DNA of 45,789 bases from a virus. Below the pieces are notes generated by a model. The model did no database searches and was not told the origin of the DNA. It saw only the letters and a list, made by a program, of their open reading frames with translations. A program made the translations under genes and the position numbers. The stretch lies in the IMG/VR virus record IMGVR_UViG_3300046525_000090, positions 1 to 45,789 of that record. One strand, written 5' to 3'. How positions within the stretch are numbered: position 1 is the stretch's first letter; each line of letters begins with the position of its first letter. This document shows positions 19,578 through 37,916 of the stretch, one piece after another.

Positions 19578-20219
19578 ATGGCCATCAGCATTACCATCTG
19601 CAACCTTGCCCTTGGCGAACTGCGCGCCCCGCCCATCGCCGATATCGATGAGGCGACGACGGAGGCGCGGGAGTGCTCGCGGTTCTACCAGCACTGCCTG
19701 GATCTGCTGCTCGAGCGGTTCGATTGGAGCTTCGCGACGCGGATCGCGACTCTCGCGCAGCGTCTGGCCAACGACCGGGCCAGCGAGTGGGCCTATTCCT
19801 ATACGCTGCCGGCCGATCTCGCGACGCCCAAGCGCCTGTTTCCGCCCACGGTCCTGCCCAGCGGGCTGGCGGTGGTGCCGCCCTTCGCGGTCGCGGGTCA
19901 GCCCTATGTCGTAGAGGCGGGCGTGCTTTACACTCAGGTTTCCGGCGCGATCCTCGAATATAGCTCGGGCAGCGTGTCCGATGCGGCGATGACGGCGCTT
20001 TTCAAGGACGCGCTTGTCTATGCGCTGGCGGCGCGCCTGGCCGTGCCGCTGCGCGACAGCCGGGAAACCAAGGGCGAGTTGCTTCAGCAAGCCGAGCTCG
20101 CGGCGCAGCGCGCGATCGCCGATGACATGAACCGCCAGCCGAGTCGCGACGAGACGGTAGACGACGAGGTCGCTGCGGTGCGCAGTGGCGGCATGGGCTA
20201 TTACGGCGGGTGCCGCTGA
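19578..20219 (+). CDS. Tail tubular protein A-like (gatekeeper/adaptor)
   Basis: A 213-residue protein with the opening pattern of T7 gp11-like proteins: ICNLALGELRAPPIADIDEATTEARECSRFYQHCLDLLLERFDWSFATR (in outline), then WAYSYTLPADLATPKRLFPP. These bind the portal and close the head. The end overlaps the next gene by TGATG. Confidence 0.9.
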   Translation: MAISITICNLALGELRAPPIADIDEATTEARECSRFYQHCLDLLLERFDWSFATRIATLAQRLANDRASEWAYSYTLPADLATPKRLFPPTVLPSGLAVVPPFAVAGQPYVVEAGVLYTQVSGAILEYSSGSVSDAAMTALFKDALVYALAARLAVPLRDSRETKGELLQQAELAAQRAIADDMNRQPSRDETVDDEVAAVRSGGMGYYGGCR

Positions 20220-21217
20220 TGGCGTTTCGGGTCGGGCAGCAGAATTTCTCGAAGGGCGAGCTATCCGAGGATCTGCTCGGCCGGATCGATGTCAGCGCCT
20301 ATTCGACCGGCCTGCGTCGAGCCAGAAACGTGATCATCCTCAAATATGGTGGGGTCACGAAGCGGCCCGGCACCAGGTTCGTCGCGGAGGTGTTCAAGGA
20401 TGAAGGCGTGCGGCTGATGCCGTTCCAGTTCAGCCTGACCCAGACCTATGCGCTCGAGCTCGGCCAGGCCTATATGCGTGTGCTCGCCGGCGGCGCGAAA
20501 GTGATCGAAGAAAAGATTGCTATCGTGTCCATCACCAAGGGCGCCACAACGACGATCTTTGCCGATTATCATGCCTATGAGCCCGACGACGAAGTGTATT
20601 TCGAGGGCATCGAGGGGATGACCGAACTGAACGGCCGCACCCTCAAGGTGCTGGCCGGTGGTGACGTCGACAGCTTCGTGGTCGACATCGATTCGACCGG
20701 CTTCGCCGATTTCACCGGCGACACGGGCGGCGCGACGCGCGCGGGGCCCCCGCCGCCGCCGCCGCCACCGCCGCCGGTCCCGCCGCCAGCACCGCCGCCA
20801 CCGCCGCCGGACACCGGCGGTGGCGGCGGGGGCGGGGGCTATCCCGGCGGAGGCTGGTGCGTCGTCGACAACACCCCAATCCTGATGGGTGATGGGACGG
20901 AGATAGAGGCGCGGTTCGTCAAGGCTGGAATGCGGGTGAAGACCCAGCACGCCGGCACCATGAAATGGGGCGTGTTCCTGGTCGAAGCTGCGGCGCAGGC
21001 CTGGCGCCCTGTCTTCGCGGCCCGAATCGGAGAGACGGTTCTCCGCGGCACCGCGGAGCACAAGGTGCTGATCGACGGACTATGGATCAGGCTGGACGCG
21101 ATCGGGAAGCCGGACGGCTCGGCCTGGGTGTCCCGCATCACCGTTGCTGACGCGCATACCTATGTCTCGGCCGGGATCCTGTCGCACAACAAGGTCGACC
21201 AGGGGCCCGACCTGTGA
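20219..21217 (+). CDS. Tail-stem (tubular B-like) N-terminal half with C-terminal Hint domain
   Basis: A 332-residue protein from ATG 20219 (TGATG overlap). Residues 1-175 match the start of podoviral stem proteins: QQNFSKGELSEDLLGRID, RARNVIILKYGGVTKRPGTRF. A Pro-rich then Gly-rich linker follows at about 177-212. Residues 214-324 are a complete Hint domain: Cys214 in CVVDNTPILMGDG (block A), TAEH at 278-281 (block B) and ISRITVADAHTYVSAGILSHN ending in His323-Asn324 (block G, in outline). After Asn324 comes Lys, not Cys/Ser/Thr, and eight residues later the protein stops. This predicts cleavage rather than splicing, as in BIL domains. The next gene, starting in a GTGA overlap, encodes the remaining stem. 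Confidence 0.9.
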   Translation: MAFRVGQQNFSKGELSEDLLGRIDVSAYSTGLRRARNVIILKYGGVTKRPGTRFVAEVFKDEGVRLMPFQFSLTQTYALELGQAYMRVLAGGAKVIEEKIAIVSITKGATTTIFADYHAYEPDDEVYFEGIEGMTELNGRTLKVLAGGDVDSFVVDIDSTGFADFTGDTGGATRAGPPPPPPPPPPVPPPAPPPPPPDTGGGGGGGGYPGGGWCVVDNTPILMGDGTEIEARFVKAGMRVKTQHAGTMKWGVFLVEAAAQAWRPVFAARIGETVLRGTAEHKVLIDGLWIRLDAIGKPDGSAWVSRITVADAHTYVSAGILSHNKVDQGPDL

Positions 21218-22998
21218 GCGTCGCCCGCGTCTATCGTACCGGTTCGCCGTTCAACGGGCCCGAACTGCCCGAGGTGGATTTCGAGCAGTCCGCGGACACG
21301 ATGTATTTCGCGCATCTGAACCATGCGCCGACCAAGCTGGTGCGCGCCGATCATACCGACTGGACCTTCTCCTCGGTCGATTTCGAACCGACGCTCGCGG
21401 CGCCAACGGGGCTGACCGCGACCGAGTCGCACCCGAACGAAGACGCGGATGCCTATTTTCCCCAGCCTGCCAGCTACATCGTGACGGCGGTCGATGACCT
21501 GTCGGGAGAGGAGAGCCGACCATCCAACCCTGACTCCTGCACCAACGACCTGACGCTGAAGCGCAACAGCAACACGATCGCCTGGACCGGCTCCGCCGGC
21601 GCGACGCGGTACCGGGTCTACAAAGCCGATAACACGGCCGAGTATGGTTATATCGGCACCACGACACTGACCTATTTCGTCGACGACAATATCGGGCCTG
21701 ATTATTCTGACGGTCCGCCTGTCGGTTCCGACCCTTTCGCCAGCACTGACGAAGACAATCCAACGGCGAATTATCCCTCGACCGTCACCTTTTTCGAGCA
21801 ACGATTGCTGTGGGGCCGCTCGAGTGCGCATCCGAACGCGATCTGGGCGTCGCGGTCGGGCCGTTTCGAGAACATGGATATCTCGCGCCCGCTCAAGGCA
21901 AGCGATGCTTTCAGCTTCGCGCTCGTCGCGGGCCGGGTCAACGCGGTGAACCAGCTGGTCTCGATCAACAACCTGCTGGCGCTGACCTCGGATAGCATCT
22001 TCAAGATCGAGGGCGGCCAGGCCGGTTATGTCAGCGCGACCGACTTCGTGACGCGCCGGCAGAACGGGCGCGGATCCTCGCGCCTGTCGCCGCTCGTAGT
22101 CGATAGCGTCTGTTTCTATCAGACCAGCGTCGGCAACGGGGTGCGGACCCTCGGGTACGAATTTCAATCGGACTCGATCAACTCGAACGACGTCACAATC
22201 TTCTCGCCCGATCTGTTCCGCGGCTTCGATATCGTGTCCTGGGCCTATGCGCAGGAACCGCGCTCGCTGATCTGGGCCGCGCGGAGCGACGGCAAGCTGT
22301 TGTGCTTCACCTGGGAACAGGAGCAACAGGTCTGGGGCTGGACGCTGTGCGAGACCGATGGACTGGTCGAAAGCGTCTGCGTCATCTCGGAGAACGGAGA
22401 GGACCGGCTCTATCTGACCGTGCGCCGCGGCGAGAAGTTGCTGATCGAGCGCATGGCCGCAGCCCGTTGGTCCACGGTGGAGCGATCCTGCTTCCTCGAT
22501 AGCGCCATTACCTATGAGTTCGACGAGCCTGAGACGCTGCTGACCAACCTGCAGCACCTTGAGGGCAGAACCATTACGGCGATCGCCGATGGCGGCGTGG
22601 TCACCGACCTTGTCGTTACCGATGGGCAAACGACCCTGCCATTTCCCGCGACGATCGTGACGGCCGGCATCCCGTTCACCTCGACGATCGAGACGCTGCC
22701 CCTTGCGTACCAGGACAGGGGCGGCTGGACCCTGGCCAAGGCTCAGACCCAAGCGAAAGCAGTGCTTCGTCTGGTCGACAGCCGCGGCGTTGCCGTGGGC
22801 CCGACCGAAGCGCTGCTCGAGGCGTTGCGGTCTCGGGTCAACGAGCTACCGGGCCAGCCCGCCTCGCTGCTGAACGGCATGTATGACGTGACCCTGCGTC
22901 CGAACCTCAACGATGGCGCGCGCCTGGTGGTGCAGTCGACCGATCCCCTCCCGATGACTGTCACCGCGATCTATCTTGACCCCTCCGTCTCGCAATAA
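21214..22998 (+). CDS. Tail-stem (tubular B-like) C-terminal part with FN3-like insert
   Basis: A 594-residue protein from GTG 21214 overlapping the previous stop. ELPEVDFEQSADTMYFAHLNHAPTKLVR is the well-known segment found in the middle of stem/tubular B proteins, so this gene continues the protein begun at 20219. Residues about 66-165 look like two fibronectin-III-type sandwiches (APTGLTATES, SYIVTAVDDLSGEESRPS, ATRYRVYKA). Then NYPSTVTFFEQRLLWGRS and the beta-propeller-like rest are standard. In other podoviruses both parts are one chain; here the Hint domain separates them. Confidence 0.88.
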   Translation: MSVARVYRTGSPFNGPELPEVDFEQSADTMYFAHLNHAPTKLVRADHTDWTFSSVDFEPTLAAPTGLTATESHPNEDADAYFPQPASYIVTAVDDLSGEESRPSNPDSCTNDLTLKRNSNTIAWTGSAGATRYRVYKADNTAEYGYIGTTTLTYFVDDNIGPDYSDGPPVGSDPFASTDEDNPTANYPSTVTFFEQRLLWGRSSAHPNAIWASRSGRFENMDISRPLKASDAFSFALVAGRVNAVNQLVSINNLLALTSDSIFKIEGGQAGYVSATDFVTRRQNGRGSSRLSPLVVDSVCFYQTSVGNGVRTLGYEFQSDSINSNDVTIFSPDLFRGFDIVSWAYAQEPRSLIWAARSDGKLLCFTWEQEQQVWGWTLCETDGLVESVCVISENGEDRLYLTVRRGEKLLIERMAAARWSTVERSCFLDSAITYEFDEPETLLTNLQHLEGRTITAIADGGVVTDLVVTDGQTTLPFPATIVTAGIPFTSTIETLPLAYQDRGGWTLAKAQTQAKAVLRLVDSRGVAVGPTEALLEALRSRVNELPGQPASLLNGMYDVTLRPNLNDGARLVVQSTDPLPMTVTAIYLDPSVSQ

Positions 22999-23008
22999 GG
23001 TCCGTCTT

Positions 23009-23449
23009 GTGCCGGCGCGGCTGGTGCATGTCGGGCCGATCGCGGTTCGGATGCGAGAGGCGGACCGGCGCGAATGCGTTGCGATGGGGCGCAACCCTCG
23101 CCAGGCGCTGCGCGAAGGGCTCCAATCGTCCACCATCTGCTTCACCGCGCTGGTCGACGCGCGACCCGAGGCGATGTTCGGCCTGGTGGTGTACAGCGCG
23201 CTCGGCGGTGCCGGCATTCCGTGGATGCTGGGCACGGACGCGATCTACGATCATCCGCGCCAGATGCTCGCGACAGGCCCGCGCCTGCTGAGCCTGATGC
23301 TCGATTCAACCCCAAGCCTCGAGAACGTAGTTGCGGTCGAGAATGAGCGCGCCATCCGCATGCTGCGCCGGTGGGGCTTCTCGATCGGGGAGAATCTGCA
23401 GGTGTTCGGCGGTGTCGACTTCGTAACCTTCAAAATGGAGCTCAGCTGA
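23009..23449 (+). CDS. Internal virion protein A-like (GNAT fold)
   Basis: A 146-residue product from GTG 23009, with TAAGG about 8 bases upstream; an upstream TTG at 22976 would overlap the stem gene. It resembles T7-group internal virion protein A/DUF2833: VRMREADRRECVAMG, ALVDARPEAMFGLVVYS, IPWMLGTDAI and VENERAIRMLRRWGFSIGE, the last being GNAT-like. Enzymatic acetyltransferase activity is doubtful in this family. A weaker copy of the late-promoter-like element lies inside (23303). Confidence 0.75.
   Translation: MPARLVHVGPIAVRMREADRRECVAMGRNPRQALREGLQSSTICFTALVDARPEAMFGLVVYSALGGAGIPWMLGTDAIYDHPRQMLATGPRLLSLMLDSTPSLENVVAVENERAIRMLRRWGFSIGENLQVFGGVDFVTFKMELS
23303..23329 (+). promoter_or_regulatory. 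Degenerate late-promoter-like element
   Basis: GATTCAA-N14-AACGTA lies within the internal virion protein A-like gene, 119 bases before the next start. Only four of six bases of the second block match, so it may be chance. Confidence 0.2.
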
Positions 23450-24033
23450 TGTGCCCGCCCGTTGCCCTTGCCATCGCCTCGGCCGCTGTAGCCGCGACCG
23501 GCGCGGTGTTCAGCGGCATCAGCCAGGCGCAGCAGTACCGATATCAGGCGCAGGTCGCGGATCAGAACGCGAAGCTGGCCGCGGATCAGGCGCGGGATTC
23601 GATCGAGACGACGAACACCGAAGCGCTTCGCGCGCGGCGCGCGCAGGCCCAGACCGAGGGGCAGCAGACCGCGGCGATGGCGGCGAACGGTGTCGATCTC
23701 AGCTTCGGCTCCGCCGCCGATGTGGTCAGCGATACCAAGATGCTGGGCAATGAAGACGTGGCCCAGATCTATAAGGGCGGCAACGAACGCACGCGCGGCT
23801 ATGATATCAACGCCTGGAATTACCGGTCGCAGGCGGCTGGGGCTCGCGCCAAGGCCAAGGGCGCCATGGTGCAGGGCATTCTAGGCGGGCTCTCCTCGGC
23901 GCTGGGAGCGGCCTCTCAGGTCACCGGGATGAAGGGGGGCGGGGGTGGCAGCGTCGGCGGCGGTAACACCAGCGGGGCGGGCTCGGGCGACGCCTATGGC
24001 CGCGGCGGCGGTATCGGGCGGGGTGGCATGTAA
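23449..24033 (+). CDS. Internal virion/ejection protein B-like
   Basis: A 194-residue protein from ATG 23449 (TGATG). The N-terminus MCPPVALAIASAAVAATGAVFSG is hydrophobic and followed by long Gln/Ala-rich helices (AQVADQNAKLAADQARDS). The segment ANGVDLSFGSAADVVSD and the Gly-rich tail are typical of podoviral internal virion protein B. It should be ejected with DNA and help form the periplasmic channel. Confidence 0.75.
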   Translation: MCPPVALAIASAAVAATGAVFSGISQAQQYRYQAQVADQNAKLAADQARDSIETTNTEALRARRAQAQTEGQQTAAMAANGVDLSFGSAADVVSDTKMLGNEDVAQIYKGGNERTRGYDINAWNYRSQAAGARAKAKGAMVQGILGGLSSALGAASQVTGMKGGGGGSVGGGNTSGAGSGDAYGRGGGIGRGGM

Positions 24034-26192
24034 TGCCCGTCGTTCCTGTCGCTCAAAATCGCGTCGGCATCGCCAGCGTCACGGACGCAAAGCTGCAACC
24101 GGGGGATTTCTCCGGCAACGCGTTCGACGCGCTCGGCCAGGGCATGCAGCGCCTGGGCGAGGGCGGGCAGGATCTCGCCAAGATGTTGGAGCACCAGGAG
24201 GCGATACAGGACCAGGCCGCGACCAAGCAACTGGACAATGAGGCGACACTCGCGATCCGCAACGTGCTGTGGACCGGCGACGGCGCCTATTTCACGAAGC
24301 AGGGCAGCGACGCGCTGAACGCGCGGGAACCGACCCAGAAGGCGTTGCAGAAAATCCGCGAGGACATGCTCGGCCGCGTCACCAGTGACCGCCAGCGCAA
24401 GATGCTGACTGACCAGCTGGACCGGCGCTTGTCCGAAGAGTTCGACGGCATCGCGCGTTACTCGCTGCAGCAGAACATCAAATATGAGCAGGATCAGTCG
24501 GTGTCGCGCCAGGCGATCCAGACCGATGAAGCGGTTCGGTCGTTTGAGGATCCGGTGAAATTCGAGTCCGCGTACAATACCGGGCTGGGCGAGATTCGCT
24601 CGCGCGCTGACATCGAAGGATGGTCGCCGGAGCGGCTCAAGATCGAGGAAAGCGACTATAGCACCGGCATTCACGGCGCTGTCACCATGGGCCTGATCGA
24701 CAAGGACCCGACACAGGCGAACGCCTATTTCCAGCAGCACCGCGACAAGATCGATTACAAGGCGCAGGCGAAGCTGGAAGGTCTGTTGCGCGAGCCGCTC
24801 GAGCGCCGGGCAGATATGGCGATCGCCGATGCGGCAATGAACCCGGGCGAAGCCGCGGCGACGGAACCGAAGACGCGCGGAGGCTATAGCGACCCGCTGC
24901 GCGGCGCCGGCAAGGCGCCGGTGCGCGGTGGCGAGTATGGTGCGGCGCGCGATTACGGCGGGCACCAGGGCGATGACTGGCCCGCGCCGGTCGGAACGGC
25001 GGTCTATTCAGGGCATGGCGCAGGCGTCGCCAAGGTCTCGCGCAGCAGGCTCGGCGGAAACACGGTGACGATCGATCACGGCGATGGCGTCGTGACTCGC
25101 TATATGCACCTGTCGGCCATCGCGGTGCAGAATGGGCAGCGCGTCGACGGCGATACGCCGATCGGCCAGGTAGGCGTTTCGGGGCGCTCGACCGGGCCGC
25201 ACCTTCATTACGAAGCGCGGGTGAACGGCCGGCCGGTCGATCCAGGGTCGCTCGTGACTCATGCCACGCGCAAGATGGATCCCGCGCCTGGCGATCTCGG
25301 GGCGGCGCTTGCCAATGTCGATGCAGATCCGCGCCTGGCAAACGACCCGGTCCGGCGCGAGCGGGTCAAGTCGGAGGTTATCCGACGCTTCGGCGTGGCA
25401 GATGCGGTGCGGGCCAAGCAGACCGACGCGGCGCGCGACGACGCCTGGCAATATATCGACCGCCTGCCCGAGAACGGCTTCACCAGCTACAGCCAACTCC
25501 CTTCCGGAATCCGCGCGCGGCTCGACCAGGACCCCAGCGCGGCGCATCAGTTCCACGAGCTCGCGGACGCGACCCGCGCGTCGCTGACCAAAGCGCCAAA
25601 GACGAACCCGATGGCCTTCATCACCATGTCGGACGCTTATGCTCGCGACCCCGCTGCATTTCTTAAGGTCCGCCCCGAGGTGATGCGGACCCAGCTCGAT
25701 GACGGCGACTTCAACATCTACATGGGCTGGCGCCGCGACGCGCTGCAGGACAAGACCGGCACCGGGAAAACCGCGAAGTGGAACGCGGACAAGGAGGTTC
25801 TCGACGCATCGAGCACGGTCATGGAGGCTGCGGGCCTGACCACGACGGGCAAGAAAGAAAAGGAACGCGCCGGCGTGGCGCAGTCGATCGCCGGATTTCA
25901 GCGTCAGATGGTCGGATGGGCGGAGGGGTACAAGTCGATCCACGGCAAGCCGCCCCCAGCGGCCGAGATCCGGCAGCAGGCCAGCCGCTACCTTGTGCAA
26001 GGCACGTGGCGCGACCCGACCACGGGCGCGAAGCGCACCGATTATCTGTTCAACTATCCCGAAAAGCAGGGCGTCGACCTGGCCATGACGGTGCCGGCCG
26101 ATGTCGCGGCGCGGATTCGGCGACAGGCTCCGCGCGCCACGGACGCGGACGTGACGCAGATCTATATCAGCGGGTTGGGCAAGCACTGGTGA
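24033..26192 (+). CDS. Internal virion protein with M23 peptidoglycan endopeptidase
   Basis: A 719-residue ejection protein. The N-terminal 275 residues are mostly helical. Residues about 295-405 are an M23 (LytM/lysostaphin) domain: His311 and Asp315 in HQGDDW, then HGDGVVTRYMHLS, then HLH at 390-392 in TGPHLHYEA. These are the zinc ligands and catalytic His. M23 enzymes cut peptide cross-links in peptidoglycan, so this protein likely opens the wall during DNA entry. The C-terminal half is helical. Overlaps the next gene by GTGA. Confidence 0.88.
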   Translation: MPVVPVAQNRVGIASVTDAKLQPGDFSGNAFDALGQGMQRLGEGGQDLAKMLEHQEAIQDQAATKQLDNEATLAIRNVLWTGDGAYFTKQGSDALNAREPTQKALQKIREDMLGRVTSDRQRKMLTDQLDRRLSEEFDGIARYSLQQNIKYEQDQSVSRQAIQTDEAVRSFEDPVKFESAYNTGLGEIRSRADIEGWSPERLKIEESDYSTGIHGAVTMGLIDKDPTQANAYFQQHRDKIDYKAQAKLEGLLREPLERRADMAIADAAMNPGEAAATEPKTRGGYSDPLRGAGKAPVRGGEYGAARDYGGHQGDDWPAPVGTAVYSGHGAGVAKVSRSRLGGNTVTIDHGDGVVTRYMHLSAIAVQNGQRVDGDTPIGQVGVSGRSTGPHLHYEARVNGRPVDPGSLVTHATRKMDPAPGDLGAALANVDADPRLANDPVRRERVKSEVIRRFGVADAVRAKQTDAARDDAWQYIDRLPENGFTSYSQLPSGIRARLDQDPSAAHQFHELADATRASLTKAPKTNPMAFITMSDAYARDPAAFLKVRPEVMRTQLDDGDFNIYMGWRRDALQDKTGTGKTAKWNADKEVLDASSTVMEAAGLTTTGKKEKERAGVAQSIAGFQRQMVGWAEGYKSIHGKPPPAAEIRQQASRYLVQGTWRDPTTGAKRTDYLFNYPEKQGVDLAMTVPADVAARIRRQAPRATDADVTQIYISGLGKHW

Positions 26193-37839: not shown

Positions 37840-37916
<77 letters not shown>

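What the first reader, a model, noticed from the sequence alone, without database searches (positions are those of the whole stretch)
20219..22998. Tail-stem protein split by a complete Hint (intein/BIL-like) domain
Residues 1-175 of the first gene and the whole second gene are the two ends of one podoviral stem protein. Between them sit a Pro/Gly linker and a 111-residue Hint domain with Cys214, TAEH (278-281) and terminal His323-Asn324, then Lys and a stop eight residues later. The second gene starts in a GTGA overlap. Lacking a Cys/Ser/Thr after Asn, the domain should cleave or form an adduct rather than splice. It could mature the stem, attach it covalently to a partner, or be an intein that lost splicing and was rescued by a new start codon.
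Basis: partly seen in the sequence, partly recalled or inferred. Interest (0 to 1): 0.88.

Follow-up and report, generated by a model that had tools for sequence, protein, structure and literature searches.

The report
Self-excising intein-like domain in phage tail
A phage tail-nozzle protein that is made from two genes carries, near the end of its first half, a complete miniature protein-splicing domain; the same domain hops between the tails of many different phage proteins and very probably cuts itself out, so it did not break the gene in two as first thought.

Summary
Profile, fold-prediction and Foldseek evidence put it with A-type bacterial intein-like (BIL) domains and DnaB mini-inteins. 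The interpretation needs correction. (1) The Hint did not split the gene: all 83 distinct relatives examined are split, with a Pro-rich tail, and 51 have no Hint. (2) It is mobile: 7-9 or more gains, losses and transfers, on nozzle proteins, central tail fibres (J) and other tail proteins, always inside a short C-terminal tail. (3) Empty sites exist (...GGQ-YNKMNQPEQPSQV without, ...GGQ-[Hint]-IKMNQPEQPSQV with), and removing the Hint from nozzle proteins restores the length of the Hint-less tail (median 19 against 18.5 residues). (4) Cys1, block-B His, penultimate His and Asn are invariant, Cys/Ser/Thr never follows Asn, and Lys stands at +1 or +2 in 52 of 52 non-redundant copies. Best explanation: an active BIL that removes itself, probably by nucleophile-independent or Lys-assisted splicing; cleavage without ligation is the main rival. 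No experiment proves either.

The parts
19578..20219 (+). Tail tubular protein A-like gene, upstream neighbour (same order as in podophages with an unsplit nozzle gene)
   Evidence: phrog_394 tail protein E=8e-41; same gene order in HTVC034P
20219..21217 (+). Gene 1: N-terminal half of the nozzle/stem protein + E1-FCCH-like domain + Pro/Gly linker + Hint + 8-residue tail (332 aa)
20219..20536 (+). Residues 1-106: N-terminal part of the nozzle family phrog_376
   Evidence: E=9.3e-33; PDB 8ck1 'Tail Nozzle' E=4e-18
20546..20716 (+). Residues 110-166: E1_FCCH-like domain (PF16190, just under its cut-off), also present in unsplit homologues
20741..20857 (+). Residues 175-213: Pro-rich then Gly-rich linker; the Pro-rich part is conserved in Hint-less relatives too
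20858..21190 (+). Hint domain, Cys214-Asn324 (111 aa); block B TAEH with His281 (21059-21061), His323-Asn324 (21185-21190)
21191..21214 (+). C-terminal flank KVDQGPDL with Lys at +1 (Lys at +1 or +2 in all 52 non-redundant copies)
21214..22998 (+). Gene 2: C-terminal part of the nozzle/stem protein (594 aa), GTG start in a GTGA overlap
   Evidence: phrog_376 E=1.5e-141; 8ck1 Tail Nozzle E=9.8e-69
22976..23449 (+). Downstream internal virion protein / acetyltransferase-like gene (start codon not settled)
   Evidence: phrog_308 E=9.5e-30; same order in HTVC034P

Best explanation
The Hint is an active A-type BIL-like mini-domain (about 108-111 aa) inserted in the short C-terminal tail of the separately encoded N-terminal half of the nozzle protein. 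Proposed steps: Cys214 takes over the preceding peptide bond as a thioester (inferred from the invariant Cys1 and block-B His); Asn324 cyclises with help of His323 (inferred from their invariance); the thioester is resolved by an amine of the C-flank, either the freed alpha-amine or the Lys side chain at +1/+2. The Hint leaves, and the protein keeps a tail like that of its Hint-less relatives, here about ...GGGW-KVDQGPDL. The Hint does not cause the gene split. It is a mobile passenger of phage tail proteins, with no homing endonuclease.
For: Catalytic set C1, block-B H, S-H-N invariant in 49 aligned non-redundant sequences; fold and profile match to BILs and DnaB mini-inteins; purifying selection. 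52 of 52 non-redundant copies have Lys at +1/+2 and none has C/S/T at +1; 31 of 31 nozzle-type loci likewise, most found through gene 2 and so not chosen for the Hint. Empty sites: L185 ...GGQYNKMNQPEQPSQV against L182/L183/L184 ...GGQ[Hint]IKMNQPEQPSQ(V/D), with 93-97% aa identity upstream to L182 and L183; L204/L206 without against L205 with; nozzle pair L013/L014 GGGGR-RYFDYDV against GGGGR-[Hint]-IKQYDPEEPV. Nozzle C-tail length with Hint removed median 19, Hint-less 18.5. Every nozzle gene 1 ends either in an intact Hint or in a short tail, no decayed intermediates. Precedent: A-type BILs splice without a +1 nucleophile (PMC5874633, PMC7765530); BIL2, the best PDB match, makes a Lys isopeptide bond (PMC8616854).
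Against: No biochemical evidence; activity is inferred from conservation. BILs without a +1 nucleophile are reported to give predominantly cleaved products (PMC7664689). The anticorrelation of the two flank lengths is weak (rho -0.40, p 0.05, relatedness not controlled). The L185 site is not exact (YN remains where the Hint form has ...HN-I), and the 3' ends of these fibres may recombine. No nearly identical empty-site pair was found for the window's own nozzle clade.
Confidence: 0.55

Rival explanations
1. Cleavage without ligation: the Hint cuts at Cys214 (thioester hydrolysis) and/or at Asn324, is shed with or without the 8-residue tail, and trims the nozzle half to its Pro/Gly linker.
For: Cys1, His and Asn invariant; BILs lacking the +1 nucleophile give mainly cleaved products (PMC7664689).
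Against: The C-flank is kept at 4-15 aa with an invariant Lys and is identical to the tail of a Hint-less allele, which is not expected of a discarded peptide.
Confidence: 0.28
2. Transfer: the thioester at Cys214 is attacked by an amine of another molecule (a neighbouring subunit or a host surface component), so the nozzle half becomes covalently attached to a partner.
For: BIL2 can transfer its N-flank to Lys of other proteins (PMC8616854); the domain sits on host-facing tail proteins.
Against: No partner gene shared by nozzle-type and fibre-type loci within about 4 kb; Asn and His would not need to be invariant for N-side transfer alone; the gene 2 start residue does not follow Hint presence.
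Confidence: 0.08
3. Inactive structural or decoration domain that stays on the virion.
For: The fold is kept and is always near the C-terminus.
Against: The invariant residues are exactly the catalytic ones, including the terminal His-Asn.
Confidence: 0.05
4. One reading: an intein that broke the nozzle gene, lost splicing, and was rescued by a new start codon for the second half.
For: The domain does lie between two halves of one family.
Against: The split with Pro-rich tail occurs in 51 Hint-less distinct loci; gene 2 starts in frames 0, 1 or 2 relative to gene 1; L004 has an unrelated gene between the halves; no decay.
Confidence: 0.02

Closest known systems
A-type bacterial intein-like (BIL) domains (e.g. 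CthBIL4, PDB 2lwy)
   Same: Hint fold, Cys1, block-B His, terminal His-Asn, no obligatory C/S/T at +1, no homing endonuclease, sits in a variable non-conserved region of the host protein
   Different: About 108-111 aa rather than the 130-155 reported; lies on phage tail structural proteins; invariant Lys at +1/+2; always within about 15 residues of the C-terminus (one internal exception group)
BIL2 of the Tetrahymena BUBL1 locus (PDB 6y75/6tmm)
   Same: Best PDB fold match; uses a Lys side chain to make an isopeptide bond (PMC8616854)
   Different: Eukaryotic, between ubiquitin-like domains, Zn-controlled; whether the phage Lys is the nucleophile is untested
Class 1 mini-inteins (Ssp/Npu DnaB)
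   Same: Fold and blocks A, B, F, G
   Different: No Cys/Ser/Thr at +1; not in a conserved active site of an enzyme
Inteins in phage terminase genes (e.g. phiCbK TerL, Gordonia phages)
   Same: Distant sequence similarity of the Hint to those of Gordonia phage terminases
   Different: Inserted in conserved enzyme sites, with a +1 nucleophile in the phiCbK case (PMC3556154)

Membership tests
Hint superfamily | Hedgehog/intein fold | tested here: met
   AF2 pLDDT 89.8; Foldseek E 7.7e-8 to BIL2
A-type BIL | Cys1, block-B His and C-terminal His-Asn | tested here: met
   invariant in 49 sequences
A-type BIL | +1 C/S/T not required | tested here: met
   0 of 52 have it
A-type BIL | Insertion in variable, non-conserved protein regions | tested here: met
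   variable C-terminal tail of nozzle and fibre proteins
A-type BIL | Length 130-155 aa (as reported for BILs) | tested here: not met
   108-111 aa in most copies; hence 'BIL-like', a shorter variant
A-type BIL | Splicing or auto-cleavage shown | not testable with these tools
   needs expression and mass spectrometry
Class 1 intein | Cys/Ser/Thr at +1 | tested here: not met
   Lys here; I/K/L/A/V/F in the family
B-type BIL | No terminal His-Asn motif | tested here: not met
   His-Asn invariant
Hedgehog Hog domain | Only N-side chemistry, with a sterol-recognition region | tested here: not met
   C-side His-Asn invariant; nothing but 4-15 residues follows; Hog is a weaker fold match, E 4.5e-4
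Podoviral nozzle (phrog_376) | Both halves match one family without gap | tested here: met

The most novel reading that the evidence does not exclude
A mobile family of phage tail BILs in which a lysine side chain at +1 or +2 replaces the usual Cys/Ser/Thr nucleophile, so that excision leaves the tail peptide joined to the virion protein through an isopeptide bond, with no accessory enzyme.
Probability: 0.22. Interest if true: 0.82.

Novelty: new variant of a known kind. Interest (0 to 1): 0.62.

Why it matters
It would be a family of intein-like elements that lives in the variable tails of virion proteins rather than in conserved enzyme sites, moves between unrelated tail genes without a homing endonuclease, and lacks the usual nucleophile. 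Natural empty and filled alleles make it directly testable whether BILs splice in their native setting and why a lysine is fixed beside the splice site. No description of it was found in the open-access library searched, which lacks most subscription papers.

Tried and rejected
Trans-splicing to gene 2 through its N-terminal Ser: rejected, because gene 2 begins Met-Ser or Met-Gly according to the overlap type, with or without a Hint. Programmed frameshift fusing the genes: rejected, because relative frames are 0, 1 and 2 in relatives and L004 has another gene between. Conserved partner gene: none shared within about 4 kb; matches were antisense or frame-shifted Hint sequence or fibre-domain similarity. 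Window-related genomes: not available, as the window is a virus record. Prevalence in host family genomes: 4 of 398, with only part of the candidates scored in each. Named, characterised phages with this domain: none found; only the uncultured record MT835519. The A1 profile could not be used for a genome scan; the narrower A2 gave six prophage-like loci. In one search the Hint-less lengths for one comparison were listed by hand, so the automated medians are cited instead. Placing the Lys in the active site was not possible, as model coordinates are not exposed.

Full report
WHAT IS THERE. Gene 1 (20219-21217) and gene 2 (21214-22998) were re-read and match the finding letter by letter. Gene 1 residues 1-106 and gene 2 residues 5-589 cover one PHROG family without a gap (phrog_376). 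Gene 2 matches the solved 'Tail Nozzle' 8ck1 at E=9.8e-69. In Pelagibacter phage HTVC034P, and by annotation in Bordetella phage BPP-1 and Caulobacter phage BL94, the homologue is one gene. In HTVC034P about 5 residues separate the two aligned halves. The neighbours, tail tubular A upstream and an internal virion protein downstream, are in the same order.

IS THE HINT REAL. A single sequence gives only marginal hits. An alignment of 49 relatives gives full-length profile matches to DnaB inteins and BIL domains in the PDB (1.6e-9 to 4.3e-8). AlphaFold2 gives pLDDT 89.8 and pTM 0.82. Foldseek ranks T. thermophila BIL2, Ssp and Npu DnaB mini-inteins and CthBIL4 at the top. Invariant across the 49 are Cys1, a Thr, the block-B His, a Trp, and the final Ser-His-Asn, which include the catalytic residues of Hint domains.

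THE HINT DID NOT SPLIT THE GENE. Scans with gene 2 brought in relatives whether or not they have a Hint. Of 83 distinct loci carrying both halves, none is fused; all have the Pro-rich tail; 32 have the Hint and 51 do not. On a gene-2 tree the Hint needs at least 9 changes, 7 of them forced by well-supported branches. Gene 2 starts by ATGA/GTGA or TGATG/TAATG overlap, or after a short gap, in any relative frame; in L004 a minus-strand gene resembling MntP lies between the two (identified by eye). So two chains are made in any case.

IT IS A MOBILE MODULE OF TAIL PROTEINS. A Hint-profile scan of viral contigs found the domain on central tail fibre J and related fibres (phrog_5616, phrog_31), a phrog_2048 tail protein and other virion proteins, in nearly every case at the C-terminus and usually after a Gly- or Pro-rich linker. 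On a Hint tree, fibre copies nest inside the window's nozzle clade and nozzle copies inside a fibre clade: 7 changes, 3 forced. Copies occur in prophage-like loci of Sphingomonas and Sphingopyxis.

WHAT IT PROBABLY DOES. The copies are under purifying selection (dN/dS about 0.1-0.4 in most close pairs), and no decayed copy was seen. Nothing like Cys, Ser or Thr follows Asn in any of 52 non-redundant copies, but Lys stands at +1 (10) or +2 (42) in all. Lys makes up 1.8% of the gene-2 frames. The most telling data are empty sites. Fibre L185 ends GGGATPPGGQYNKMNQPEQPSQV; its relatives L182 and L183, 97% and 93% identical upstream, end GGGATPPGGQ-[Hint]-IKMNQPEQPSQ(D/V). L204 and L206 lack the Hint where L205 has it. 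In the nozzle set the stretch from the Pro-rich linker to the C-terminus is 18.5 residues (median) without Hint and 19 with the Hint taken out; the two flank lengths are weakly anticorrelated. Both flanks are thus kept as one tail, as expected if the domain excises itself and rejoins them. Published A-type BILs lack the +1 nucleophile and can splice or cleave (PMC7765530, PMC5874633, PMC9185962), though cleavage often prevails (PMC7664689). BIL2, the best fold match, forms an isopeptide bond with a Lys side chain (PMC8616854). Whether the conserved phage Lys plays that part is inference.

WHAT IS SHOWN AND WHAT IS INFERRED. Shown by sequence: domain identity, intact catalytic residues, independence of the gene split, mobility, empty sites, the Lys rule. 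Inferred: that the domain is active, that it leaves the protein, that it ligates the flanks, and the role of Lys. Related sequences are not independent, and E-values of locus confirmation are relative to candidates only. The Hint scan used a conserved pattern around A-H/R-T/S-Y, but most of the 31 nozzle-type loci came in through gene 2 and obey the same rules.

VERDICT. A new, shorter variant of the A-type BIL kind, with an unusual home (virion tail proteins) and an unusual fixed Lys.

Noticed in passing
L004 2295-2867 (- strand); L090 appears to share the arrangement: A host-like gene resembling the manganese exporter MntP (identified by eye) sits on the opposite strand between the two nozzle genes of a close relative.
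   Followed up: partly
L050 3281-4366 and 4763-7213: One contig carries two Hint-bearing tail proteins, a phrog_2048 protein and a larger fibre-like protein; the two Hint domains are 56% identical.
   Followed up: partly
L084 3206-5482, L085, L088: An internal version of the Hint followed by about 364 more residues, again with Lys after Asn; carrier without a PHROG match.
   Followed up: no
L006, L010, L012 gene 1: An extra domain of about 85 residues is inserted after residue ~60 of the N-terminal nozzle half.
   Followed up: no
L015, L016, L017, L018 gene 2: Gene 2 carries an insertion of roughly 65-75 residues near residue 175.
   Followed up: no
L202: The fibre has an extra domain of about 120 residues inserted within its otherwise conserved region before the Hint.
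   Followed up: no
window 24033-26192: Large protein with an M23-type metallopeptidase region (phrog_10475, phrog_7767), likely a virion-associated lysin.
   Followed up: partly
window 37840-37916: A tRNA-Met gene (anticodon CAT).
   Followed up: no
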